Origin: Coriobacteriia bacterium
GTDB lineage: Bacteria > Actinomycetota > Coriobacteriia > WRKU01 > WQUG01
Length of the DNA stretch: 33,193 nt
Assembly: GCA_009781115.1 (NCBI GenBank)
Contig: WQYT01000015.1
Coordinates: forward strand, 1-33,193
Reading direction: 5' to 3'
Positions 17,885 to 30,909 of this stretch are shown piece after piece; position 1 is the stretch's first letter; each line of letters begins with the position of its first letter. Below the pieces are notes generated by a model, which was given only the letters and a program-made list of their open reading frames with translations, ran no database searches and was not told the DNA's origin. The translations under genes were made by a program, and so were the position numbers.

Positions 17885-20800
17885 GTGAGACTGATCATGA
17901 AGGATGCAAGCTACCACCAAACGACGCCAGTAAACGCCAGAACTTGTCCGCGAGGCAATAACTTCGCGCAACCACCGCCTCCACCACACTGCGCAAGCCC
18001 TTGCCCTCCGCCCCCTCTGCCTACTAAACCGCACTTTAAACGTTTCCTTTGTGTTCTTCTGATTTTCTCCCTCTTCTTTTCTGTTTACCCTACCCTTTTA
18101 TTTGCTGCTGACATCCCCCTGTCATCTGATGTGACTTCAGCTTCTGCTTCTTTAGCAGGAGCCGAACCAGTAAGCGATGAGCGCCCCTTAGGACAAAAGC
18201 CCTTAGACAGCAGCCAGCTTGCGCAACTCGGCGCCCAGGCAGAGGCGCAAGCAGGCGAAAGCCCGTACCAGATACCAGAGATCACCGGAGAAGAGACCGA
18301 GCTGCGAACTGAGTCCGTTAAACATTTCAGATGCGCCGATGGCTCATCAGTAGCGGTAGATTATGGCTATCCTGTCCACTTCAAGAGGTCGCTTGACAGC
18401 CCCTGGGAACAGAGAGATTATTCTTTAGTGGATGCAGGGCAGACCGCACGCGATGGTACTAAAGAGTATTCCCTTAAAGCTGCGCCTGATAAGATAACTG
18501 TTGCTGCAACAGCTAAATCAGCCCAGATTCTTTCTGCCCAGGTTGCAGGACACAGTCTCTCTTGGGGATATGCCGGTATTGCTGCAACCAAAGCAGAGGT
18601 TGCAAACGGGCAGGCTGCCATAAGCAGAGATAGCGCCAAGCTTAGCTCTATCAGATCAGAGGTCATAGCAAGTGACATATCAACAACCACACCAAAGCTG
18701 GCAGCTAAGTCCGGCGCACAAAGCCCCGCACAAGCAGAAACAACCAAGCCCGAGGCGCTGACTGGCAATGATAAGTTCTTAACCTTAACCAGTCTTACCT
18801 CATCGTCTTATTACGCTGATATCTATGACAGCGTTGATGTTGACTATGTCATAGGTCCGCTCGGGGTCAAAGACAATTTGATCTTAAAGTCGCCGCAAGC
18901 CCAACATGAGTTTATATCAGACTATGATATTGGGGACTTGACAGCAAGACAGACAGATTCAAAGACCATAGACCTAATGGACGAAACAGGATCAGTTGTT
19001 GCTACCCTCAGCGCACCATATATGACTGACAGCGCAGATGATATCTCCTACGATCTGACGCTTTCTATCGTAAATAACAGCTCCGGAAAGCTCAGCGTAA
19101 AACTTAGCGCTGACAAAACGTGGCTTACCAGCAAAGACAGGGCTTATCCGGTTGTGATAGACCCGATGCTACAAAGCGTCCAGACGACCTATCAGCAGGC
19201 CTATGTTGCTTCAGGGCAGCCCAGCACAGCTCATCCGTATGGCGATATGTATGTCGGCTATGATGGCAACGCCTACAAAATAGCGCGCGGTTATCTGCGC
19301 TTTGATTTTCCCACTATACCAACCGGCTCTATTGTCTTAGAAGCTAACCTTGCAATGTATCAGTATTCCTACAGCGCAGTACCGTCTAATACCACCGCCA
19401 CAACCTATACGTTGCATCCGGTGACAGACACGACCTGGACAGCAAATACGCTGACCTGGAACAATAAACCAGGGTATACCTCAACAGTTTCTGACTACGC
19501 GATTACTTCTTCAGCAAAAAACGCAAACTATCTGACCTTCGACGTTACCAGACTGGTCAAAGATACCCTTGAGACCTCGACTGCTTCAACTAAAAAGCTC
19601 TCAGTCATGCTCAAAGGCAAAAATGAGACCACCACGTCTCCTTACGCAAACGTGCGGCTGCTTACGGCAAACTATCCTGGGCTGCCATCAGGCGCAAAGC
19701 CCTTTATCTATTTCTTCTACCGTGACAGCAAGGGGCTGGAAGACTACTGGTCATATACGACCATAAGTGCCGGAGACGCAGGGACGGCCTCGGTAAATGA
19801 CTACACCGGCAACCTTGTCTTTGAGCACGCAGACGCAGCTACCACAGGGCTCAGGATGCCGGTCGCGCTGTCTTCAGTCTATAACTCCGATATCTCAGAT
19901 GGCTATCGTCCCGGGGGAGCTTCAGGAGAGATCCGTCATGGCAGAGGTTGGAAGCTATCACTGATCTGTCGTGTGCAGACAACAGCTGCCGTTGGCTTTG
20001 CAGGCGACACAACGGTCTATCCTTACGTCTATACTGACGCAGATGGGACGCTGCATTACTTTAGAAAGGACGGAACTAAAATTACCGATGAAGACGGGCT
20101 GAACTTAGAGCTGGCAAAGCTTACTTCAGGCTACAGCATCACTGACAAGAAAGGCGGTGTGATGACCTTTGACGCAGATGGCTATCTCACTCAAATCAAG
20201 GATGCCAATGGTAATGCCGCTACCATCAGCTACGTTTCTGGCTCACACCGCCTGTCACAAGTCAAAGACGGCATTGGGCATATCATCAGCTTTGACGCGC
20301 CACTTAACAGTGCCGGTAATGCTTACTACCTCTCAAAGATCACTGATCCGGCGGGGCGTGTTACGGGCTATTCCTGTGACAGCAATGGACGTCTTGTGCA
20401 GATCAAGTATCCAGACGCTACGCTTTCAAAGTATGAATACAACGCCAAAGGCCAGCTCTACCGCGCCTACTCATCAGATGGTACCGGGGCTGAGTTTATC
20501 TATAAATCAGATGGCAGCGTGTCACGCATACGTGAATATGGAGGAACACCCACAAACCCCATGAGCTCGCCCGGGCTTACCTATCGTTTTGATCGTTCGA
20601 AGTATTGCGCTACTACCATTGAAAGCCCGGGAGCAGACGGAGTCCTTTCTTTAACTGATGGAGACACCCGCAATGACGACAATGTCTTCACAACCCTACA
20701 ATTTGACACCTGGGGGCATACAGTCTCATCCATTGCAAAGGTAGGCAGCACCACACTGGGGGCGGGAACTTCATCTTATACCAAAGGCAGCAATGACAGC

Positions 20801-23800
20801 ACGAGCGACACCGCTAAGCGCAACCGTCTCATTAACTCGGCGACACTGGCCAAAAACTCAGTCAATTTATGTGCCAATCCCGGCGCTGAAGCAGCCTTGG
20901 GCTCAGAGTGGACCAGTCTGCTCTATGGAACAAGCGCTACCTTCAGCTTTGCCCGGACCAGTGCAGATAAATATCAGGGTAACTACTCGCTGAAGCTTAC
21001 TTCAACAGCTGCAGGGACCACCTCGGCTGCCAGGGCTTATCAGGCTTTTTCTACCACTGATGTCAAGGGGGGCTATACCTACACCTTTTCAGCAGACGTA
21101 AAGGCAGCAGGCATAACTCCCGTGCAAGGTTCTGTAAGCTCAAAGGCTGGCGCCGTCCTGCTTTTGTATGCCTACTCGCCAACGGGGAACACTTACACCT
21201 TCTCAGAGTACCTGAGCGGCACTACTGACAGCGCCACAGACAGTGGATGGAGGCGCCTGTATGCCACCTTAAAGATGCCTGATGACACCACCTCTGTGCG
21301 CGCCAACCTCATGATCTATTCAGCCACCGGAAGCGCCTACTTCGATAACATGCAGCTGGAAAACGCCACCGCACCAAACTCTTGCAACCTGATAGAAAAC
21401 GGCAGCCTGGAACGTGGCAGCGGTATTGCTCCAACCAAATGGAGCGCCACAGGCCTTGACGCGTCAACTGATGGGCTGTCAGGCACCTATTATCAGTACA
21501 ACTCAAAGTCTTTCAAGATCGCAGGCGTACCCTCTGCAAGCAAAGAGCTCAAACAAGATATCGCAATCACCGGGGTTGCGCGTGATACCTATATCGTAAG
21601 CGGTTGGGCGCGCGCGACTGCCATCATGCGCGACGACGCCAAATATGACCTGGTGGCCACCGTTACCTATGCAGGCGGCACAACTAAAGACAGAGCAACC
21701 GCCTCATATAACTCCTGCATATCAGACTGGCAATATGTAAGCGCCGCCTTTACGCTGGGGTCAGGAAGCACTTCAAGTGACCTGCCGGTAAAAGTCAGTG
21801 TTCGTCTGCGCTATACCAAGCAAGATAATACCGCCTACTTTGATAACATAGCGCTTATCAAAGACAGCGCGCCTACCTATACCTATGACGCAGATGGAAA
21901 TTTGTTGACCGTATCTGCCAATGCGCAAAATAACGCCGCGATGCAATATACCAATAATGATCTGACCAAGTACACCGATGCCAAAGGCTATGCTTATACG
22001 TATACCTATGACACCAAACACAACATGACCCAGGCAAAAAGCCAAAACGGAGTGACCTCTAACTACGCCTATGTCAACGGCAACCCAAAAACCCTTGATG
22101 TAAAAAGCCCCGGACAGACTCTGGATATTGCAACGTCTCTTACCTATACGGCTGCTACAGGGGGTCTTTCTGCTGGCGGTTATGTGTCGTATGTCTATGA
22201 CCCAGACGGAGTCTCTGAACACTATACCTATGACCAGGCAAAGGGACTTGTGACATCGGCAAGTAACCGTAACAACATCAGTACCACTTATACCTATAAC
22301 GCAAATACTGACCAGATGACCTCCGTGTCCAGCTCAGGAGCTACTGCTTCTTACGGCTATACCGATGATCGCTTAAGCTCTGTTACCCATAACGGCTTTA
22401 GCTATCACTTAAGCTATGATGTCTATGGAAACCCCACGGAGACCAAAGTAGGCAGCCAGTCGCTCTCTAAGCACGCCTACACTGGTTGGGGAGGACTATT
22501 GAGTTCTGAGACCTACGGAAATGGGGACTTGGTGCAGTATGCCTACAACAACTACGGCGCTGTTACCTCCGTCAAGAAAGGAAATGCGACGACTACTCCG
22601 GCTACCAAATACGGTTGGTCATATAACAGTGCGGGAGACCCCTATAAGCACACAGACTATGTATCTGGCCTTACCTATCAGTACCGTACAGACTCAATAG
22701 GGCGGGCTGTCTCCCAGCGTGTCTCATCTACTGCCGACAGCTCTACTAAATACGAGACCCAGTACGGCTATGACGTAAACAACAACATAAACAAAGTGGT
22801 AAACGCAGCTACCGGAGGATCTACGTATACAACCTCATATACCTACGGGCAAGATAACCTGCCCACAACAGCAGGGTTTTTAGGCACGACACGCAAAATT
22901 GACTATACCCATGACGCCTTAAACCGTCTGCAGCAGACTAACCTGAGCTTAGATGCTCCTCTCAATCAGTATTATGGTTACAAGCTCTCTGACAGAAACA
23001 CAACTGATCAAACACAGTATCGCACCACAACGCTTGCTTATGAGTTTATCGGGCTGAGGGGTTATACCTATACCTATGACAGCATGGGCAATCTCTTAAC
23101 CGTCAGAGAAGGCGTCCGTGCAAACCAGGACGTTAACGCAGGTTCAGGCTTTGCTACCAAGATTAGCTATCAATATGACAACCTGGGACAGCTCATAAGA
23201 GAAAACAACGTCTACACTAACAAGACCACGACCTGGACCTATGACAGCGGCGGAAACATTACTTCCAGAAAAGAATACGCCTACACCACAGGAACTCTGG
23301 GGGCAGTGCAAAAGACAGTCAGTTATACCTATAACGCTACCTGGAAAGACAGGCTGGACAACTACGGTGGGAGCGCAATCACTTATGACGCCATAGGTAA
23401 CCCGCTTAGCTATAGAGGTTACAGCTTGGGCTGGAGCGGGGGCAGACAGCTGGCAACCATCTCCGGCAACAAGATTACCTCAGGAAGCTTTAAATATGAC
23501 GCAGCAGGACTACGAAGCCAGAAAAAGATCAATGGAGTCACTACTGACTACTACTATGTAGGAGGACAGCTCCTGGCAGAAAACAGAGGCGGTGTAATCT
23601 ATCAATACCAATATGACGCAGCAGGCAGACCAGCCCGCATCTCTTTTACCAGCTCTGACGGTGTAGCTACCAGTCTCTACCTTATTTCTAACAGCAGAGG
23701 AGACATCGAAGAGATACGCAACGCTGCCGGTAACTTATGCGCTCGTTACTACTACGATGCCACAGGAAATATCACCTCTATCCAAAATGCGAGTGGAGCA

Positions 23801-24592
23801 GAGATTACCAGCGCCACCAACATCGCCATCATCAATCCCTTCCGCTACCGGGGCTACTACTACGATTCAGAGACAGGACTGTACTATCTGGAGAGCAGAT
23901 ACTATGACCCTGCTACCGGGAGGTTTATCAATGCTGATGGCATGGTGCAGACGGGACAAGAGATCAACGGGACTAACATGTTTGCCTACTGCGGCAATGA
24001 TCCAGTGAATAATGTTGATCCATCGGGACAGTTGTTTACGCCTGGAGAGGCGAACTCATACTACTATACGGGCAATCCAAAAGCTCCCGATGCAAAGTTA
24101 TACGCAAAGATTTACCCCAAACAGCAGAAAAAAGCAAATAAAATGCAGCAAGAATTCGTTGGACCATCGGCAGCCAGTCAAAATAGAATTTTTGATACTA
24201 TTGACGAAGCCGCAATAGATTTTGTATTGCGATACAATGCCATATCGATAAGTTCCTGTCGAGAATATGATGTAATTATTGTAAAAACACCTGACGGTAG
24301 ATACACCTATGGGGAGCCAGGGATAGGCCCTAAAAGAACAGGCTATAAGGGGTCAGGTGCTGCTTTGTATTGGGATGCAAATATTGTTGGCTGGGTGCAT
24401 ACACACGGACAATATTATGGCCCGCTAAATGACTACTTCACTAGTACTGGTGCCGATTATGATATTTCAAAAAATTGGAACATACCTGGATATGTGGGAA
24501 CTCCAGCGGGTACAGTGAGAAAATATAACCCCTTTAATGGCAGTGACTTGATAATTTTCTATAATGCTCCGCGTGACCCAAGGCATCCGTAA
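17885..24592 (+). CDS. Secreted RHS/YD-repeat polymorphic toxin with C-terminal DUF4329-like domain
   Basis: 2235 aa; N-terminal hydrophobic segment RFLCVLLIFSLFFSVYPTLLFAAD; DNRLRE-like region (YVASGQPSTAHPYGDMYVGYDGNAYKIARGYLRFDFP); two CBM-like NxxxNPGAE/NLIENGSLE modules; many YD repeats (YTYDADGNLLTV, YQYDAAGRPARI); RHS core end FRYRGYYYDSETGLYYLESRYYDPATGRFINADG...NPVNNVDPSG-type; variable tail with VGWVHTHGQYYG. Confidence 0.9.
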   Translation: MRLIMKDASYHQTTPVNARTCPRGNNFAQPPPPPHCASPCPPPPLPTKPHFKRFLCVLLIFSLFFSVYPTLLFAADIPLSSDVTSASASLAGAEPVSDERPLGQKPLDSSQLAQLGAQAEAQAGESPYQIPEITGEETELRTESVKHFRCADGSSVAVDYGYPVHFKRSLDSPWEQRDYSLVDAGQTARDGTKEYSLKAAPDKITVAATAKSAQILSAQVAGHSLSWGYAGIAATKAEVANGQAAISRDSAKLSSIRSEVIASDISTTTPKLAAKSGAQSPAQAETTKPEALTGNDKFLTLTSLTSSSYYADIYDSVDVDYVIGPLGVKDNLILKSPQAQHEFISDYDIGDLTARQTDSKTIDLMDETGSVVATLSAPYMTDSADDISYDLTLSIVNNSSGKLSVKLSADKTWLTSKDRAYPVVIDPMLQSVQTTYQQAYVASGQPSTAHPYGDMYVGYDGNAYKIARGYLRFDFPTIPTGSIVLEANLAMYQYSYSAVPSNTTATTYTLHPVTDTTWTANTLTWNNKPGYTSTVSDYAITSSAKNANYLTFDVTRLVKDTLETSTASTKKLSVMLKGKNETTTSPYANVRLLTANYPGLPSGAKPFIYFFYRDSKGLEDYWSYTTISAGDAGTASVNDYTGNLVFEHADAATTGLRMPVALSSVYNSDISDGYRPGGASGEIRHGRGWKLSLICRVQTTAAVGFAGDTTVYPYVYTDADGTLHYFRKDGTKITDEDGLNLELAKLTSGYSITDKKGGVMTFDADGYLTQIKDANGNAATISYVSGSHRLSQVKDGIGHIISFDAPLNSAGNAYYLSKITDPAGRVTGYSCDSNGRLVQIKYPDATLSKYEYNAKGQLYRAYSSDGTGAEFIYKSDGSVSRIREYGGTPTNPMSSPGLTYRFDRSKYCATTIESPGADGVLSLTDGDTRNDDNVFTTLQFDTWGHTVSSIAKVGSTTLGAGTSSYTKGSNDSTSDTAKRNRLINSATLAKNSVNLCANPGAEAALGSEWTSLLYGTSATFSFARTSADKYQGNYSLKLTSTAAGTTSAARAYQAFSTTDVKGGYTYTFSADVKAAGITPVQGSVSSKAGAVLLLYAYSPTGNTYTFSEYLSGTTDSATDSGWRRLYATLKMPDDTTSVRANLMIYSATGSAYFDNMQLENATAPNSCNLIENGSLERGSGIAPTKWSATGLDASTDGLSGTYYQYNSKSFKIAGVPSASKELKQDIAITGVARDTYIVSGWARATAIMRDDAKYDLVATVTYAGGTTKDRATASYNSCISDWQYVSAAFTLGSGSTSSDLPVKVSVRLRYTKQDNTAYFDNIALIKDSAPTYTYDADGNLLTVSANAQNNAAMQYTNNDLTKYTDAKGYAYTYTYDTKHNMTQAKSQNGVTSNYAYVNGNPKTLDVKSPGQTLDIATSLTYTAATGGLSAGGYVSYVYDPDGVSEHYTYDQAKGLVTSASNRNNISTTYTYNANTDQMTSVSSSGATASYGYTDDRLSSVTHNGFSYHLSYDVYGNPTETKVGSQSLSKHAYTGWGGLLSSETYGNGDLVQYAYNNYGAVTSVKKGNATTTPATKYGWSYNSAGDPYKHTDYVSGLTYQYRTDSIGRAVSQRVSSTADSSTKYETQYGYDVNNNINKVVNAATGGSTYTTSYTYGQDNLPTTAGFLGTTRKIDYTHDALNRLQQTNLSLDAPLNQYYGYKLSDRNTTDQTQYRTTTLAYEFIGLRGYTYTYDSMGNLLTVREGVRANQDVNAGSGFATKISYQYDNLGQLIRENNVYTNKTTTWTYDSGGNITSRKEYAYTTGTLGAVQKTVSYTYNATWKDRLDNYGGSAITYDAIGNPLSYRGYSLGWSGGRQLATISGNKITSGSFKYDAAGLRSQKKINGVTTDYYYVGGQLLAENRGGVIYQYQYDAAGRPARISFTSSDGVATSLYLISNSRGDIEEIRNAAGNLCARYYYDATGNITSIQNASGAEITSATNIAIINPFRYRGYYYDSETGLYYLESRYYDPATGRFINADGMVQTGQEINGTNMFAYCGNDPVNNVDPSGQLFTPGEANSYYYTGNPKAPDAKLYAKIYPKQQKKANKMQQEFVGPSAASQNRIFDTIDEAAIDFVLRYNAISISSCREYDVIIVKTPDGRYTYGEPGIGPKRTGYKGSGAALYWDANIVGWVHTHGQYYGPLNDYFTSTGADYDISKNWNIPGYVGTPAGTVRKYNPFNGSDLIIFYNAPRDPRHP

Positions 24593-24612
24593 AACTGAAA
24601 GGAAGTGTTGAA

Positions 24613-25146
24613 ATGAAGAGAGTAACTAATGCAGTTAAGATTCTTACGTTAGTATTCATTTTCATGATCGGGTGCACGGCGTGTGCGCAAGAATCTGGGC
24701 ATGCAGAACCTCATAGTTCTACGAACAGTAGCCAGTCAAAAACAAGCAGTTCTGTTGAGTCTACTGAATCAAATAAGCAAATCGTTTATGATTTATTTAA
24801 CAAGCTGTATATATATGAAGATGATGGTGATACTGCTGCTGATTTTGCAATAGGTGAGGCAGACAAATTATCTGACAAATGTTTAGGGAAAATTACTTCC
24901 GAAGAAGATGCCAAAGAAAAAGCTGAAGTCACTTGGATGAAAATAGACGGATATGGTGACGCCAAAGGTGAAAAACCATATGATGCAACATATTATAAGG
25001 AGTATGATGTCTGGCTGATTCATGGAGCTCTTAATACGCCAAGCACAGATTCAAGCGGCAGAAAGTACGCTATTCCTGGTGGAGTAGATTACATTATCAT
25101 GCGAGCATCAAACGGAGAAGTCTTAGCGGTTTGGGGTGACAGTTGA
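24613..25146 (+). CDS. Lipoprotein, candidate immunity protein (NTF2-fold immunity-like C-terminus)
   Basis: Lipobox FMIGCTAC; ITSEEDAKEKAEVTWMKIDGYGDAKGEKPYDATYYKEYDVWLIHGAL...GGVDYIIMRASNGEVLAVWGD resembles NTF2-fold immunity domains; immediately downstream of the RHS toxin. Confidence 0.6.
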   Translation: MKRVTNAVKILTLVFIFMIGCTACAQESGHAEPHSSTNSSQSKTSSSVESTESNKQIVYDLFNKLYIYEDDGDTAADFAIGEADKLSDKCLGKITSEEDAKEKAEVTWMKIDGYGDAKGEKPYDATYYKEYDVWLIHGALNTPSTDSSGRKYAIPGGVDYIIMRASNGEVLAVWGDS

Positions 25147-25152
25147 TTCCGG

Positions 25153-25239
25153 TGGGGTGCATACCCCGCAGCTCTGCTGCGTGCCGGACGGCGATGCGAA
25201 GCGAGCTAGGCCTGATACCCCGCGGTCTCTGCCGCGGGG
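25153..25239. repeat. REP-like double-hairpin element
   Basis: CGCAGC-tct-GCTGCG (25167-25181) and CCCCGCGG-tctctg-CCGCGGGG (25218-25239), each preceded by ATACCCCGC; GC-rich in an AT-rich neighbourhood. Confidence 0.75.
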
Positions 25240-25256
25240 AGCGGCTTCGTTTCGAT

Positions 25257-25397
25257 GGATTCGCTGTAAATACGTTTTATGGAGGTGCATACAGTGGGTG
25301 GTTTACAACTGATGTTAAAACGCATCTGTTCTCACTCTCTACAAATCCGGGCGGGTCTGCTGGGATAGATCATTATTGGGACGTAAGTAGTAAATGA
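25257..25397 (+). pseudogene. Orphan RHS toxin C-terminal fragment
   Basis: GFAVNTFYGGAYSGWFTTDVKTHLFSLSTNPGGSAGIDHYWDVSSK*; no own start; its stop overlaps the ATG of the next ORF (ATGA). Confidence 0.5.
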
Positions 25398-25636
25398 AGT
25401 ACTATCATTTAATTTTTGGAAGTCTTTCTGTGATTGTGGGTCTCTATTCGATCATTAGAAGGAATCATCCATCAAAGCGCCAAGAAATTCTTTGGGGTGA
25501 GGAATTAATAGAGAAAAGAGCCTACAAAGTATCTTACATTATTCTTAGCATTTTGATCATTTTGGTTGGACTAAATTTAATCGCCAAAGGAATATTTGAT
25601 CCAAACAGTGGGTATTTCTTTGTTCGCTTTAGATAG
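25394..25636 (+). CDS. Small two-TM protein, candidate immunity protein
   Basis: 80 aa MKYYHLIFGSLSVIVGLYSIIRRNHPSKRQ...KVSYIILSILIILVGLNLIAKGIF; translationally coupled to the preceding fragment. Confidence 0.6.
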   Translation: MKYYHLIFGSLSVIVGLYSIIRRNHPSKRQEILWGEELIEKRAYKVSYIILSILIILVGLNLIAKGIFDPNSGYFFVRFR

Positions 25637-25656
25637 TCTGCATTTGAAGCAGGTAA

Positions 25657-25764
25657 AGTAAGAGACCACTACCTGGAGCTAGGACGATGGAGAAAATATC
25701 ACCGCCAAAAGGAACACATTCAGTCAATCCAAAATATGAAGGCCGATTCTATAAATATAAGTAG
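25657..25764 (+). pseudogene. Short orphan ORF, possible RHS toxin C-terminal fragment
   Basis: SKRPLPGARTMEKISPPKGTHSVNPKYEGRFYKYK* ends 7 nt before the ATG of the next lipoprotein remnant. Confidence 0.4.
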
Positions 25765-25771
25765 GAGGAAA

Positions 25772-25935
25772 ATGAAGAAGCTTATCTTAATTACAATGAT
25801 CGTCTGCTCTTGCGTTCTGGTTTTCTGTAGTAGGAATACGTCATCAGAAAAGCAAGTTCAAGTGTTATTACACAGAGCAAAAACTATATCATTACGCGGC
25901 TTAGTGTAGATAAAGTATCGAGCATATATAACTGA
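25772..25935 (+). pseudogene. Frameshifted short lipoprotein remnant
   Basis: MKKLILITMIVCSCVLVFCSRNTSSEKQ... in one frame, continuing as SSSVITQSKNYIITRLSVDKVSSIYN* in another; SD TAGGAGGAAA. Confidence 0.45.
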
Positions 25936-25945
25936 GGTGACAGAG

Positions 25946-26855
25946 ATGAAATTAGTAAAGATATTAATAATTGCTTTACTTTTGTCTGCTCTTTCAGCTT
26001 GTAGTTTAGTGACAAACGGCGATTCTGGTTCCAGCAACACTGTAAGCAGTTCTGGGGCATGGAAATTACATTCGCATCAGTCATTGACGAGCAACGCGAT
26101 CTCGCGAGCAGAGCTACGTGCAAATGAAGGGATGACGATTGATGTTTTGGGTGTCGGATTGAAAAGCGTTGTTGTCAGGAGGAAGGCTGAGGAGCACGTC
26201 ACTAGCTTTAATCAATCCCCTTTATATGCATATATTCTCAGTGATTATCGTTATAATCAGCCTGCCACTCATGATTTCTATTTAGCTGTCGAAACGGGAA
26301 GCAAAGTACTGTTTTACGACTTCGAGAGTTCCAGTCTTGATGATATTTTATGCTTTTGTGACGTGGATGGTGATGGACTGGATGAGATTATTGTCCAACA
26401 AACGATTGATGAGCTCGGAGGGGCGGGGCAATTTTCATCACACATTTTTAAGGTCATTGATAATAAAATTCAAGAAATATTTTATTCATCAACGGCTAAT
26501 CAGTTTGATACTGGTTTTACCAGCATGTTTTTGAATGGGCGCAAATTAAAGATCACGAATAGTATTACTGGATACCATAAGATCATTGATATATCAAAAA
26601 GATATACCAGTGATTTCTTTGACAAAAATGGCAAACCTGTTAGCAAAGAAACGATTTGGTGTGACAGTTTTCATGAGTTTACCCCCAGGGATGTCGATGG
26701 AGACGGCGTTTTTTGAGATGATCTGTTTGCAGTATGTATCCCTGGATAGTCACGCAGATGGCATAGGCGATACCAAAAGTGTTTTGAAATACAATAAGCA
26801 AACAAGAAAGTTTGAAGTTGTCCAGGCAGAGTTCATCCCTGCAAAGTATTTGTAA
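25946..26855 (+). pseudogene. FG-GAP/VCBS-like lipoprotein interrupted by a frameshift at a T6 tract
   Basis: Lipobox LSALSACS; DVDGDGLDEIIV and DVDGDGVF|EMICLQYVSLDSHADG...; ORFs 25937-26716 and 26586-26855 join if one T of 26709-26714 is skipped. Confidence 0.7.
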
Positions 26856-26865
26856 GGCCAGGTAA

Positions 26866-26961
26866 AATGAAAAAGTGGATCAAGTCAGGAAACTTTCAGT
26901 TCGACGTGTTGAGGCGTATTGGGGTGATGAGTATGAAGATAGATTTTTCATTAAGAAGTAA
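26866..26961 (+). pseudogene. Short orphan ORF, possible RHS toxin C-terminal fragment
   Basis: NEKVDQVRKLSVRRVEAYWGDEYEDRFFIKK*; no start codon; ends 9 nt before the next lipoprotein ATG. Confidence 0.4.
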
Positions 26962-26970
26962 AGAGGCATC

Positions 26971-27564
26971 ATGCGCAAGAAGTCGTTCCTTATCATTCTC
27001 GTGGTTTTCTTATTGATGGGCTGTAATGGGAAGGACACTCAATTAAATAAACCAAACTTTCCCGCTTCTGTAGATGCGCCTGCTGCGGTTCAGCCCGTAA
27101 TTTCGGAAGGCGAGCAATATAAGGTTGTCGGTGATTTAGAAAACGGGTGGCATTATTATATATATGACCGAAAGGGTGATGTTGTAGATAGTAGTAGCGG
27201 AGATAGAGTTCCTCCAGATATTAATTATGTCTCTAGTGACATCATCGAGATACGTTCGCATGGGGGAACTTATGCTGACGTCTGCAAGTATTATGACGTC
27301 ACTTCCAATCAATTTTCCGAAGACTATGACAATCCATTTCTCGTGCAGGGTGGCAAAATCGTTTACTATGACGCACAGACAAGAATGCTCACAATAAGAG
27401 ATATCTTTGATAAGTCAGTCTTCTATAAGGAATATAAAAGAAATATGTCTTGGGATCGGCCGCCGCTTTCCATTAAATTAGATTACAATGACAGGCAGCT
27501 AACGATAACTTATTATGATGAATCTGATGTTCACATAAAAACGGAAACATTGAAATTGAATTAG
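26971..27564 (+). CDS. Lipoprotein of unknown function (candidate immunity protein)
   Basis: MRKKSFLIILVVFLLMGCNG lipobox; 197 aa; within the RHS tail. Confidence 0.6.
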   Translation: MRKKSFLIILVVFLLMGCNGKDTQLNKPNFPASVDAPAAVQPVISEGEQYKVVGDLENGWHYYIYDRKGDVVDSSSGDRVPPDINYVSSDIIEIRSHGGTYADVCKYYDVTSNQFSEDYDNPFLVQGGKIVYYDAQTRMLTIRDIFDKSVFYKEYKRNMSWDRPPLSIKLDYNDRQLTITYYDESDVHIKTETLKLN

Positions 27565-27720
27565 TTCGGCTGTGAAACAGGTAGATATGACGGAAAATGC
27601 GCTGCAGCAATATCTGGTAATTTTAGTAGGATACCATCAATTTTTATGCAACATACAATTGGTGGGCATCTTGGAAGGCGACAAGATGAATGTAATCTGT
27701 TCATAAATGGGGCGTATTAA
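27565..27720 (+). pseudogene. Orphan RHS toxin C-terminal fragment (candidate)
   Basis: FGCETGRYDGKCAAAISGNFSRIPSIFMQHTIGGHLGRRQDECNLFINGAY*; no start codon, in frame with and directly after the preceding TAG. Confidence 0.45.
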
Positions 27721-28336
27721 GTTGAAACAAACAAAAATGGTCACCGCCATCCTCCTCTTTCTTATGTTGCTGTTTCTTGTATCTGCATGTCAGCATTTAC
27801 CATCAGGAAGTTCTGGCACTTCGTCGAGTAATAAAAAATTGAGCAGTGATACTAATGTGATGCCAAGCAATATAGGAATGACTCCTGGAGATAATTATTA
27901 CGAAGAAAATGCCAAGTGGTTCAAGAACAATCCCATTGATAAAGCCTACCTTGCGGAAGCTCAACCAGATACTACATATGGCAATGCGGAGCTCGAAATG
28001 AAGTATTTGACTATCTGGCAAAATGAAGTTGCTTTCAGCGCATCAAATTTCAGAAAACGACTAGATGCAAGCGATGCTGCTGCATTCGATCGTCAACAAA
28101 AACTGTGGGAAGAGTGGGCAAATGGCAGTATTGATTTCGACCATGACATAATGAATCACGGAAAATACGGAATTGATATGGGAACAAGCAGGCAGTTTAT
28201 TTACACCGATGCAAAAATGAATATATGGCGAGATAGGGACATGCATTTGAAATACCTTACGTCATACCTGGAATATTATTGTGATAATCCTCTGCCTGAA
28301 AACCAATGGACCTGGAACAAGTTTAATTATCCTTAG
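27707..28336 (+). CDS. Lipoprotein of unknown function (candidate immunity protein)
   Basis: Lipobox LLFLVSACQ; 209 aa or slightly shorter (alternative starts TTG 27722, ATG 27737). Confidence 0.6.
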   Translation: MGRIKLKQTKMVTAILLFLMLLFLVSACQHLPSGSSGTSSSNKKLSSDTNVMPSNIGMTPGDNYYEENAKWFKNNPIDKAYLAEAQPDTTYGNAELEMKYLTIWQNEVAFSASNFRKRLDASDAAAFDRQQKLWEEWANGSIDFDHDIMNHGKYGIDMGTSRQFIYTDAKMNIWRDRDMHLKYLTSYLEYYCDNPLPENQWTWNKFNYP

Positions 28337-28340
28337 GAGG

Positions 28341-28457
28341 ATAATAAGACACATCAATAATCTTCTGTATTGGGGTGATGGGTTACGAAGAAAGAAAAAT
28401 AACCCATGGAGCTCAGGAAGAGTAGTAAGCATAACGAAAGTAGGCAACTGCCATTAA
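28341..28457 (+). pseudogene. Short orphan ORF, possible RHS toxin C-terminal fragment
   Basis: IIRHINNLLYWGDGLRRKKNNPWSSGRVVSITKVGNCH*; no start; precedes a lipoprotein ATG by 11 nt. Confidence 0.35.
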
Positions 28458-28468
28458 GGGAGTGGAAC

Positions 28469-29109
28469 ATGAAAAAAGCTGTTATACTGCCAGCCCTTAT
28501 AACGCTGCTTATATTATTAATAGCAGGATGCGCTTTAAACGCTAACAGCAATCCGAATAGCTCGCAGTTATCTTCAAGCACAAATGTAAAGGCAGAGCCA
28601 TGGCAAAATGCGTATGCGGAATTTCTAAAGGGCTTTCCTGCTCTTACTGACTATGATTTCTCGACTTTTTCTTTGAGGGACTTAGATAATGACAGCGTTC
28701 CCGAATTAATAATCATTCAAGGAAAAGAAGATGAACAAATTAAGACCCTATCTGTTTATTCCTATAACGGCCTGTTGTTAAAACTGGCGAATGCGATGAT
28801 CCAAACTCATATGCAGGTGCATTCCGTTTCTCAAAGAGCCCGATATTTCCCGGATTGTTTTCTCTTAGATGGGATGGAGGTGTAGAGTATTACGGATACC
28901 TGTCAGTCAAGGAAAAGCAATTGGTGTTTGAGGATTTATGGCGGATGGATCGGACGTCAGATGTACCGCAACAAATAGAAGTTTCTGATAATAAGGAGCT
29001 TGTCCATGAATCAATGCGCGTATTCTTGCCTGGTGATAATACTGATAATTCGCTCAAAACATACTTAATGAATAACGATAATATCAATGAAATTGTTTTG
29101 CAGAATTGA
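28469..29109 (+). pseudogene. VCBS-like lipoprotein interrupted by a frameshift near 28848
   Basis: Lipobox LLIAGCAL; ORF 28406-28885 (real start 28469) continues in the -1 frame as ...YFPGLFSLRWDGGVEYYGYLSVKEKQLVFEDLWRMDRTS... to 29109. Confidence 0.65.
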
Positions 29110-29188
29110 GGCCCGTCTTGGAAAAAGCGTACTACTTTGTGAAAAATGATAACCAGGTATTCTCAGTGCTGAAACAGAAAGAGCAGGA

Positions 29189-30040
29189 ATGAAAAAATTA
29201 ATTGCTGTTTGCATTTTGCTGATGTTGGTTTTGGCGTCATGCACAACGTCACAAAGACCAAACCCGATGGGATCATCATCAGTACAATCAAAGCCTGAAC
29301 TTTCATCGGCAGAGACAACTAATACAACAGGTGATGCTCCGTATACAATAAGCAACTCATATATTGCTATTACAAATACCGCAGCGAAGTATTTCATCCA
29401 AACCTATACGCTGATTGACAATTCACACAAGAACAGTAAAGTCTCTATTCGCTTTCCACAGCTTGTTATGGGGGATGACGCAATAAATAAACTCATAGAA
29501 AATTATGCAATCCATTTTGCAGAAAACGGCTATGGAAAAGATTACGCTAACTTGTCTTTGGACGTGGATTATCATATTACTTACAATGATGATGAGTGGA
29601 TAAGCATTTCATTTAATGGGTTTGGCAATGTAAAAACTGCGCCGCATCCCAATAACATATTAACGACATTAAACATTAATTTGAAGAATGGATCGACTCT
29701 AAAACTGAGTGATATTTATACGATTGATAAAAGTTTTGTACAGATCTATCGGAAAGAATTTGCGAAACAAATGGCTTATCGTTTTGGGGTGGCAGACACC
29801 ACAGCAAATGAAGCCGCCAGGAACTACCTGGATCAATATGACGATAAGACGCTGACAGGGTACCTTAATGATTCTTACTGTTACATGACTTGCGATAAAA
29901 TCGGAATTAGTTTTGAAACGATATTTGCAATGGGCAATCATTTTGAACCTGAAATCCCTTATTCAGATTTGCTACCGTATTTGAAACTGCATACAGCACC
30001 CTTCAGCAAGCCTGGGTTTGGAACTATGGTTGGATGGTAA
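29189..30040 (+). CDS. Lipoprotein with DUF4163/RsiV-like domain
   Basis: Lipobox LVLASCTT; NLSLDVDYHITYNDDEWISISFNGFGNVKTAPHPNNILTTLNINLKNGSTLKLSDIYTID. Confidence 0.65.
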   Translation: MKKLIAVCILLMLVLASCTTSQRPNPMGSSSVQSKPELSSAETTNTTGDAPYTISNSYIAITNTAAKYFIQTYTLIDNSHKNSKVSIRFPQLVMGDDAINKLIENYAIHFAENGYGKDYANLSLDVDYHITYNDDEWISISFNGFGNVKTAPHPNNILTTLNINLKNGSTLKLSDIYTIDKSFVQIYRKEFAKQMAYRFGVADTTANEAARNYLDQYDDKTLTGYLNDSYCYMTCDKIGISFETIFAMGNHFEPEIPYSDLLPYLKLHTAPFSKPGFGTMVGW

Positions 30041-30087
30041 GAATACGTGAGCTACTAATCCACAGAATCTTTAAAAAGGAAAAGAAG

Positions 30088-30909
30088 ATGAAATATTTCA
30101 GAGAGTATCACCTCCTCAGGCTTTCAATAACCCTTGCATTGATAACCCTGTTGCTTTCTGGTTGTGCAGGAAATCAAAAACAAACAAGTAGTTTAGGTAG
30201 AGCTGTATCGGGGGGATTTGATGTTGTTTCCTATTGCGCAAAGGAAGAAACTGCCAAAAATCGTATTTATTTTAACTATCCGCAATTTCAAGAGACAACG
30301 CCTGATGCAGACAAACTCAATGGACTGATAACTGGATTTGTAAAAAACGCTTTGCAGATATGTAATGGCGGGGGAGGATTTAAAGGCAACTTAAAAGATA
30401 CTTCTGAGAGTTGGAAATGGGATGAAGATGGCTATAGTGTTTTGGCTCTTGATGTTGACTATAAGATTACACGAAACGACTCAGATTATCTTAGCGTTAC
30501 GTTTGAAGGGGAATTTAATCATAAACGGCTCCCACATCCCACAAACTATTTCAACGCGCTTGTTATTGATATTAGAAAATGCGAATTAGTTTCATTATTA
30601 GATCTATATAATGTCGATGACGACTTTTTGAAAATGCTGAGAAGCGAATTTTCAAAACAGATTATTAGGGACCCGAAATATAATGAGATAAATGCGAATG
30701 AGAGAAAAATGTTGCAAGGATCTTTTGATGATTACACAGATGACTATTTGCGTAAATTGCTGGGACCCGAAGATGCCTATCCAAAATTATATCAGAGGAT
30801 GTTTTTGACTTCAGATATGGTGGGGGTTAGTATGCCACTGTCACATGTCGTAGGCGATCATTTTGAAGTGATGATCAGCTACGACGAATTAAGCAGCTTT
30901 GAAAGGTAA
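30088..30909 (+). CDS. Lipoprotein with DUF4163/RsiV-like domain, paralogue of the preceding gene
   Basis: Lipobox LLLSGCAG; VLALDVDYKITRNDSDYLSVTFEGEFNHKRLPHPTNYFNALVIDI...LLDLYNVDDDFLKMLRSEFSKQ aligns with 29189-30040. ATG 30088 used. Confidence 0.65.
   Translation: MKYFREYHLLRLSITLALITLLLSGCAGNQKQTSSLGRAVSGGFDVVSYCAKEETAKNRIYFNYPQFQETTPDADKLNGLITGFVKNALQICNGGGGFKGNLKDTSESWKWDEDGYSVLALDVDYKITRNDSDYLSVTFEGEFNHKRLPHPTNYFNALVIDIRKCELVSLLDLYNVDDDFLKMLRSEFSKQIIRDPKYNEINANERKMLQGSFDDYTDDYLRKLLGPEDAYPKLYQRMFLTSDMVGVSMPLSHVVGDHFEVMISYDELSSFER

What the first reader, a model, noticed from the sequence alone, without database searches (positions are those of the whole stretch)
24032..30909. RHS toxin tail: string of orphan toxin C-termini and lipoprotein immunity candidates
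Right after the RHS core (…NADGMVQTGQEINGTNMFAYCGNDPVNNVDPSG) composition drops to visibly AT-rich and stays so for ~7 kb until the oxidoreductase operon. In this stretch seven lipoprotein genes or remnants and one two-TM gene alternate with short start-less ORFs: GFAVNTFYGGAYSGWFTTDVKTHLF…, SKRPLPGARTMEKISPPKGTHSV…, NEKVDQVRKL…EAYWGDEYEDRFF…, FGCETGRYDGKCAAAISGNF…, LLYWGDGLRRKKNN…. Most end within ~20 nt of, or overlap, the next gene start. This matches how displaced CT/immunity cassettes accumulate behind polymorphic toxins, but with almost all immunity candidates secreted as lipoproteins, which would imply toxins acting outside the cytoplasm or neutralised at the cell surface.
Basis: partly seen in the sequence, partly recalled or inferred. 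Interest (0 to 1): 0.82.

Follow-up and report, generated by a model that had tools for sequence, protein, structure and literature searches.

The report
RHS toxin with lipoprotein immunity tail
Behind a large bacterial RHS surface-toxin gene sits a row of leftover antidote genes, nearly all coding for proteins tethered to the outside of the cell, and relatives show that at least one of them guards against a cell-wall-cutting toxin that used to be attached to the same locus.

Summary
Observation mostly confirmed. After the RHS core (ends 24031) G+C falls from about 0.50 to about 0.40 until about 31 kb. The stretch holds the RHS gene's own toxin tip (DUF4329 = Tox-JAB-2), its immunity lipoprotein (Imm-NTF2-2), then six further complete or frameshifted lipoprotein genes, one truncated lipoprotein gene and one two-TM gene, all on one strand. 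One displaced cassette is demonstrated: F4+L6 (27565-28336) is the tail of a GH24 lysozyme plus an LprI-like lipoprotein. An intact RHS-GH24 + LprI-lipoprotein pair exists in Coriobacteriia genome G368; a longer remnant plus an RHS-core scrap lies at the orthologous site in same-genus G001. In 400 genomes of the class this lipoprotein family occurs only in those three places. Across the class, the nine RHS tips with a recognisable peptidoglycan-acting domain all had an exported next gene (0 of 24 sampled TM/cytosolic cases). The other fragments (F1, F2, F3, F5, F6) have no detectable homologue, and their open frames are only marginally better than chance. Strings of leftover immunity genes are known; a nearly all-lipoprotein one, tied to cell-wall-degrading tips, is a new variant.

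The parts
17885..24592 (+). RHS gene: signal peptide, CBM96/DNRLRE domain, RHS repeats, Rhs-associated core (23789-24031)
24032..24592 (+). Current toxin tip (CT): DUF4329 / Tox-JAB-2, with HTH...S...D residues
   Evidence: Pfam PF14220 E=2.4e-13; Tox-JAB-2 definition in PMC3482391
24613..25146 (+). Cognate immunity lipoprotein, Imm-NTF2-2
   Evidence: PF15631 E=7.8e-8, above cut-off; only copy in 400 genomes of the class
25145..25257 (.). Dispersed G+C-rich repeat element, also on contigs C89 and C7 of the same genome (84-85%)
25258..25397 (+). F1: start-less open frame ending in ATGA overlap with the two-TM gene; possible CT remnant
   Evidence: no homologue
25394..25636 (+). Two-TM protein, immunity candidate
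   Evidence: most RHS immunity candidates in this class are TM
25657..25764 (+). F2: start-less open frame; unproven CT remnant
25772..25909 (+). L3: truncated lipoprotein gene
25946..26855 (+). L4: FG-GAP-type lipoprotein, frameshifted at a T6 run near 26710 (frames 25946-26716 and 26715-26855)
   Evidence: relative in G061, 46% over the alignment; both halves match it in order
26866..26961 (+). F3: start-less open frame; unproven CT remnant
26971..27564 (+). L5: lipoprotein, no known family
27565..27720 (+). F4: C-terminal remnant of a GH24 (phage-type) lysozyme CT
   Evidence: score 55 to the G001 tail, maximum of 3000 shuffles 49; shared RRxDExNxFxxGxY tail with G368
27722..28336 (+). L6: LprI-like (lysozyme-inhibitor-like) lipoprotein, immunity of the GH24 tip (start 27707, 27722 or 27737)
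   Evidence: homologues directly behind GH24 tips in G368 and G001
28337..28457 (+). F5: open frame ending 11 nt before L7; unproven CT remnant
28469..29109 (+). L7: FG-GAP-motif lipoprotein, frameshifted near 28790 (frames 28469-28885 and 28798-29109)
29110..29192 (+). F6: open frame with ATGA overlap with L9; unproven CT remnant
29189..30040 (+). L9: lipoprotein, distant PdaC/RsiV-like similarity
   Evidence: PdaC E=0.048, below cut-off; relatives in the class
30088..30909 (+). L10: lipoprotein, paralogue of L9 (33% identity)

Best explanation
The locus is a WapA-like secreted RHS polymorphic toxin whose 3' tip has been exchanged repeatedly. Each incoming toxin-tip/immunity pair was inserted at the RHS core, pushed the previous pair downstream and cut off its toxin part. 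Old immunity genes were kept, some by now decaying, as a same-strand tail. The current pair is a DUF4329 (Tox-JAB-2) tip and an Imm-NTF2-2 lipoprotein. Most of the displaced tips probably acted in the cell wall zone, so the antidotes are lipoproteins displayed on the outer face of the membrane. SHOWN: current pair; lipoprotein tail; F4+L6 as remnant of a GH24-lysozyme/LprI-lipoprotein pair; intact version in a relative; same chromosomal site in G001; class-wide link between exported immunity and cell-wall-acting tips. INFERRED: order of insertions, that L4, L5, L7, L9, L10 are immunity genes, that any of them still protects, and where the DUF4329 tip acts.
For: DUF4329/Imm-NTF2-2 pair, a pairing already listed in PMC3482391. 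G368: RHS gene ending in Phage_lysozyme (1.9e-16) followed after 10 nt by an LprI lipoprotein (1.9e-4, above cut-off) homologous to L6. G001: GH24 tail plus LprI lipoprotein just upstream of the same oxidoreductase operon (88% DNA identity over 2087 nt), with a 73-nt scrap of RHS-core DNA directly after the lipoprotein. L6 family in 3 of 400 genomes, each time behind a GH24 tip or remnant. F4 aligns to the GH24 tail of G001 better than any of 3000 shuffles. Survey of 116 RHS tips: peptidoglycan-type Pfam domains at E<=0.01 in 6 of 13 lipoprotein-followed tips, 3 of 13 SP/1TM-followed tips, 0 of 24 sampled TM or cytosolic ones; p=0.0018 exported versus rest, 0.006 lipoprotein versus rest. Independent loci in G061 with Phage_lysozyme2 tips are followed by tandem, partly decayed lipoprotein genes.
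Against: Five of six orphan fragments have no homologue and the open-frame signal is marginal. L5 and L7 match no family; L4 and L9/L10 relatives were found away from RHS genes. The L6 match to the LprI profile itself is below cut-off. AlphaFold models of L9 and L6 were too poor to use. Rules for calling lipoproteins and next genes were simple and at least two calls are doubtful (L137 with gap 122, L025 multi-TM).
Confidence: 0.74

Rival explanations
1. A general surface-lipoprotein island: the lipoproteins are host-lysozyme or stress-defence proteins (LprI-like, PdaC/RsiV-like, FG-GAP) that accumulated next to an RHS gene, without cognate RHS tips; only the first is immunity.
For: LprI/FG-GAP lipoproteins sit beside comEC/holA in this genome and in G001 without a toxin; L9/L10-like proteins found in the class are PdaC/RsiV-like and not at RHS genes in the loci looked at; a termite gut would contain host lysozyme (own knowledge).
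Against: L6 family is found only behind GH24 tips; same-strand packing with remnant and ATGA overlaps; RHS-core scrap next to the L6 orthologue in G001.
Confidence: 0.15
2. The whole tail arrived as one block from a donor (probably Bacillota) together with the RHS tip, so the array was built elsewhere and is only a passenger here.
For: Uniform low G+C from CT to L10; Imm-NTF2-2 in 1 of 400 class genomes; block import is one of the routes described in PMC5361080.
Against: A GH24/LprI pair is present at the orthologous site in G001, so at least that cassette seems to have been exchanged at this locus within the genus. It is compatible with the best explanation in mechanism and differs only in where the array formed.
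Confidence: 0.3
3. The start-less fragments F1, F2, F3, F5 and F6 are chance open frames in A+T-rich spacers, and only F4 is a real toxin remnant.
For: Combined p=0.02 only, driven partly by F4's own gap; no homologues.
Against: F1 and F6 end in ATGA overlaps with the next gene, a usual CT/immunity junction.
Confidence: 0.45

Closest known systems
[quoted passage not shown] 2012, PMC3482391)
   Same: Full toxin gene followed by several different immunity genes, read there as leftovers of earlier tip replacements.
   Different: That survey names Imm65 as its only lipoprotein immunity family; here eight of nine candidates, one of them truncated, are lipoproteins.
Tox-JAB-2 (DUF4329) / Imm-NTF2 family 2
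   Same: Same toxin tip and same immunity family, same RHS carrier.
   Different: The immunity protein carries a lipoprotein signal, which does not fit the suggestion there that JAB tips act as nucleases.
Sequential displacement immunity arrays in Vibrio cholerae T6SS (PMC5361080)
   Same: Successive replacement of effector modules leaving immunity genes and 3' ends behind.
   Different: Secreted RHS surface protein in a Gram-positive lineage; most antidotes exported lipoproteins.
TslA/TilA lipase and immunity lipoprotein arrays of Staphylococcus (PMC10730906)
   Same: Variable rows of immunity lipoproteins against an extracellular toxin.
   Different: One paralogous family (DUF576) and a T7SS lipase; here several unrelated families behind an RHS gene.
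X-Tfi lipoproteins of the bacteria-killing T4SS (PMC6536674)
   Same: Lipoprotein antidotes to peptidoglycan hydrolases, one with the topology of lysozyme inhibitors.
   Different: Gram-negative periplasm, T4SS, not an RHS tail.

Membership tests
RHS polymorphic toxin | RHS repeats and Rhs-associated core followed by a variable tip | tested here: met
   tip begins at 24032
Tox-JAB-2 / Imm-NTF2-2 pair | DUF4329 tip with H[ST]H, S, D residues, followed by Imm-NTF2-2 | tested here: met
   Pfam above cut-off for both; HTH and S/D seen in the sequence
Tox-JAB-2 / Imm-NTF2-2 pair | Toxic enzyme activity of the tip | not testable with these tools
   no solved relative by sequence
Displaced CT/immunity array | Tandem different immunity genes, same strand, behind the active toxin | tested here: met
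Displaced CT/immunity array | Former tips recognisable as remnants and as intact tips in relatives | tested here: inconclusive
   met for F4+L6; no homologue for F1, F2, F3, F5, F6
Polyimmunity locus (Zhang 2012) | Immunity genes not interrupted by toxin genes or cassettes and apart from regular toxin loci | tested here: not met
   headed by an RHS toxin and containing at least one toxin remnant
LprI lysozyme inhibitor (PF07007) | L6 scores above the Pfam cut-off | tested here: not met
   E=0.14, 13 of 22 bits; its homologues in G368 and G001 do reach the cut-off
GH24 phage-type lysozyme (PF00959) | F4 holds the catalytic domain | tested here: not met
   F4 is only the last 51 residues; no Pfam hit
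RsiV/PdaC lysozyme-binding proteins | L9/L10 above the PdaC cut-off or same fold as RsiV | tested here: inconclusive
   E=0.048 and 0.16, below cut-off; model pLDDT 51, no usable fold match

The most novel reading that the evidence does not exclude
The tail is a bank of outward-facing antidotes, largely built from lysozyme-inhibitor-like families, against cell-wall-degrading RHS tips; and DUF4329/JAB tips act on the cell surface rather than as nucleases, since their immunity protein is a lipoprotein here and a JAB-like (HTH..D) tip in G127 is also followed by a lipoprotein.
Probability: 0.35. Interest if true: 0.7.

Novelty: new variant of a known kind. Interest (0 to 1): 0.52.

Why it matters
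The best-studied RHS/CDI toxins act inside the target cell and have cytosolic antidotes (own knowledge). This locus and its relatives suggest a branch in a Gram-positive lineage (Coriobacteriia) in which RHS tips attack the cell wall from outside and protection is a membrane-anchored lipoprotein. The rule that exported immunity goes with peptidoglycan-acting tips can be used to predict where unknown tips such as DUF4329 act.

Tried and rejected
Scan of genome contigs with the L4 pair: nothing. Scan with the GH24 tip: only G368, G001 and two Bacteroidota loci; no entry into Bacillota genomes was obtained. Plasmid collection: only one weak L10 match. Viral contigs with L9/L10: nothing. Rfam: nothing. 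PADLOC: nothing usable. PDB by sequence for L6, L9/L10 and DUF4329: nothing significant; for L4 only general FG-GAP proteins. AlphaFold of L9 and L6: mean pLDDT 51 and 48, fold search meaningless. L4 against the Phage_lysozyme2-linked lipoproteins: hhalign 82% but only over the FG-GAP motif, so not claimed as homology. First RHS-core patterns too strict, replaced by profile coordinates.
Full report
Setting. The window is contig C15 of a draft genome of 1.98 Mb in 128 contigs. Two related genomes could be named: G001 = WRFR01000025.1 and G368 = WRBR01000079.1, Coriobacteriia MAGs with isolate names Lab288P4bin85 and Lab288P1bin85; that these come from termite gut is my own reading of the sample names. 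The RHS gene runs 17885-24592 and carries an N-terminal hydrophobic signal, a CBM96/DNRLRE domain, RHS repeats and the Rhs-associated core ending at 24031. Downstream G+C drops to about 0.40 until the oxidoreductase operon near 31.2 kb.

What is in the tail. The current tip is DUF4329 (Tox-JAB-2), followed after 20 nt by an Imm-NTF2-2 lipoprotein. This pairing is listed by Zhang et al. 2012 (PMC3482391). Behind it, all on the + strand, are a 113-bp dispersed repeat, a two-TM gene, a truncated lipoprotein gene, and lipoproteins L4, L5, L6, L7, L9 and L10. L4 and L7 are split by frameshifts. Between them lie start-less open frames F1-F6. F1 and F6 overlap the next gene as ATGA.

Are the fragments more than chance? 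Against dinucleotide shuffles of each spacer, the length of open frame reaching the next start gives single p-values of 0.04-0.78 and a combined p of 0.02. That is marginal. Homology is the better test. F4 aligns with the C-terminus of a GH24 lysozyme tip in G001 with score 55 against a maximum of 49 in 3000 shuffles, and shares the tail motif with G368. The other fragments match nothing convincing in 156 loci, which include the regions behind more than 100 RHS cores.

The demonstrated cassette. In G368 an RHS gene ends in a GH24 domain (PF00959, 1.9e-16), and 10 nt later starts an LprI lipoprotein (PF07007, 1.9e-4, above cut-off) homologous to L6. In G001 a GH24 C-terminal piece of about 104 residues precedes an LprI lipoprotein. 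The DNA from window 31120 onward is 88% identical to G001 from 1449 onward, so this is the same chromosomal site, and directly after the G001 lipoprotein lies a 73-nt scrap of RHS-core DNA (79%, 1e-11). A profile of the L6 family finds only these three places in 400 genomes of the class. Intact tip, long remnant and short remnant thus form a series that fits displacement of a GH24/LprI pair from the tip position. The oxidoreductase operon also lies near the G368 locus (about 70% DNA identity), but other genes intervene there.

Where do the toxins act? In the class, 60 of 300 genomes have an RHS core. For 116 tips the next gene was classed as TM 60, cytosolic 21, SP/1TM 13, lipoprotein 13, none 9 (the window is one of the lipoprotein cases). 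Pfam at E<=0.01: lipoprotein-followed tips were CHAP (two), NlpC/P60 or endolysin-like (two), YkuD, PG_binding, Peptidase_C39, DUF6973, Zn_dep_PLPC, DUF4329 and three without a hit. SP/1TM-followed tips: Phage_lysozyme2, Amidase_6, YkuD, Ntox44 twice, rest none. TM or cytosolic sample (24): no peptidoglycan-type domain; one nuclease-type tip (Tox-REase-7) with a cytosolic antidote. Peptidoglycan types are 9 of 26 exported against 0 of 24 others, p=0.0018; lipoprotein alone 6 of 13 against 3 of 37, p=0.006. The comparison set is a random sample of the TM and cytosolic cases, related genomes are not independent, and the classification rules are simple, so the figures are indicative.

Independent parallels. 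In G061 an RHS gene (contig C62) and a second long surface protein (C63) end in Phage_lysozyme2 (3.1e-22, 6.6e-19) and are each followed by tandem lipoprotein genes of one family, the later copies decayed. On C62 the first of these has an atypical lipobox. The family is related to FG-GAP+LprI lipoproteins in the window's own genome (hhalign 98%, 1.6e-13). On contig C8 of the window's genome, where no RHS gene was found, a CHAP-like C-terminal remnant (E=0.006, below cut-off) ends right at the start of a lipoprotein gene, among other lipoproteins. So the same kind of debris occurs elsewhere in this genome.

Limits. L5 and L7 have no family, L9/L10 are only distantly PdaC/RsiV-like, and L4's relative in G061 is not at an RHS gene. 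LprI/FG-GAP lipoproteins also occur next to comEC without a toxin. Bacillota, the likely donors, could not be searched. Structure predictions were unusable.

Comparison with the known. Strings of immunity genes left by tip replacement are described (PMC3482391; PMC5361080). Lipoprotein antidotes are known singly or as paralogous rows (Imm65; TilA, PMC10730906; X-Tfi, PMC6536674). What is new here is a mixed row, nearly all lipoproteins, behind an RHS gene, with at least one member traced to a displaced cell-wall-cutting tip. Filed as a new variant of a known kind.

Noticed in passing
window 25145-25257: 113-bp G+C-rich (0.68) repeat with hairpin-like palindromes, also at G000:C89:1153-1259 and G000:C7:6818-6914 (84-85%), with shorter partial copies on other contigs; absent from 12 relatives.
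   Followed up: partly
L058:4350-9607 (G000:C8): Second lipoprotein array in the same genome, without an RHS gene found on that contig: PdaC-like, FG-GAP+LprI fusions, and a CHAP-like C-terminal remnant ending at the start of the next lipoprotein gene.
   Followed up: partly
L022:1145-1217: 73-nt scrap of RHS-core DNA (79% to window 23334-23406) directly behind the LprI lipoprotein gene of G001.
   Followed up: yes
L185:1-8042 (G061:C63): 1868-aa surface protein ending in Phage_lysozyme2, followed by two intact and at least one decayed lipoprotein genes of one family.
   Followed up: partly
L127 and L128 (G015:C1:763500-785000): Long row of RHS-core-bearing orphan tips in one complete genome, with a mixture of TM, lipoprotein and other next genes.
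   Followed up: no
L117:4294-4896 (G127:C9): Tip with HTH...D residues resembling the window's DUF4329 tip, followed by a lipoprotein; no Pfam hit.
   Followed up: partly
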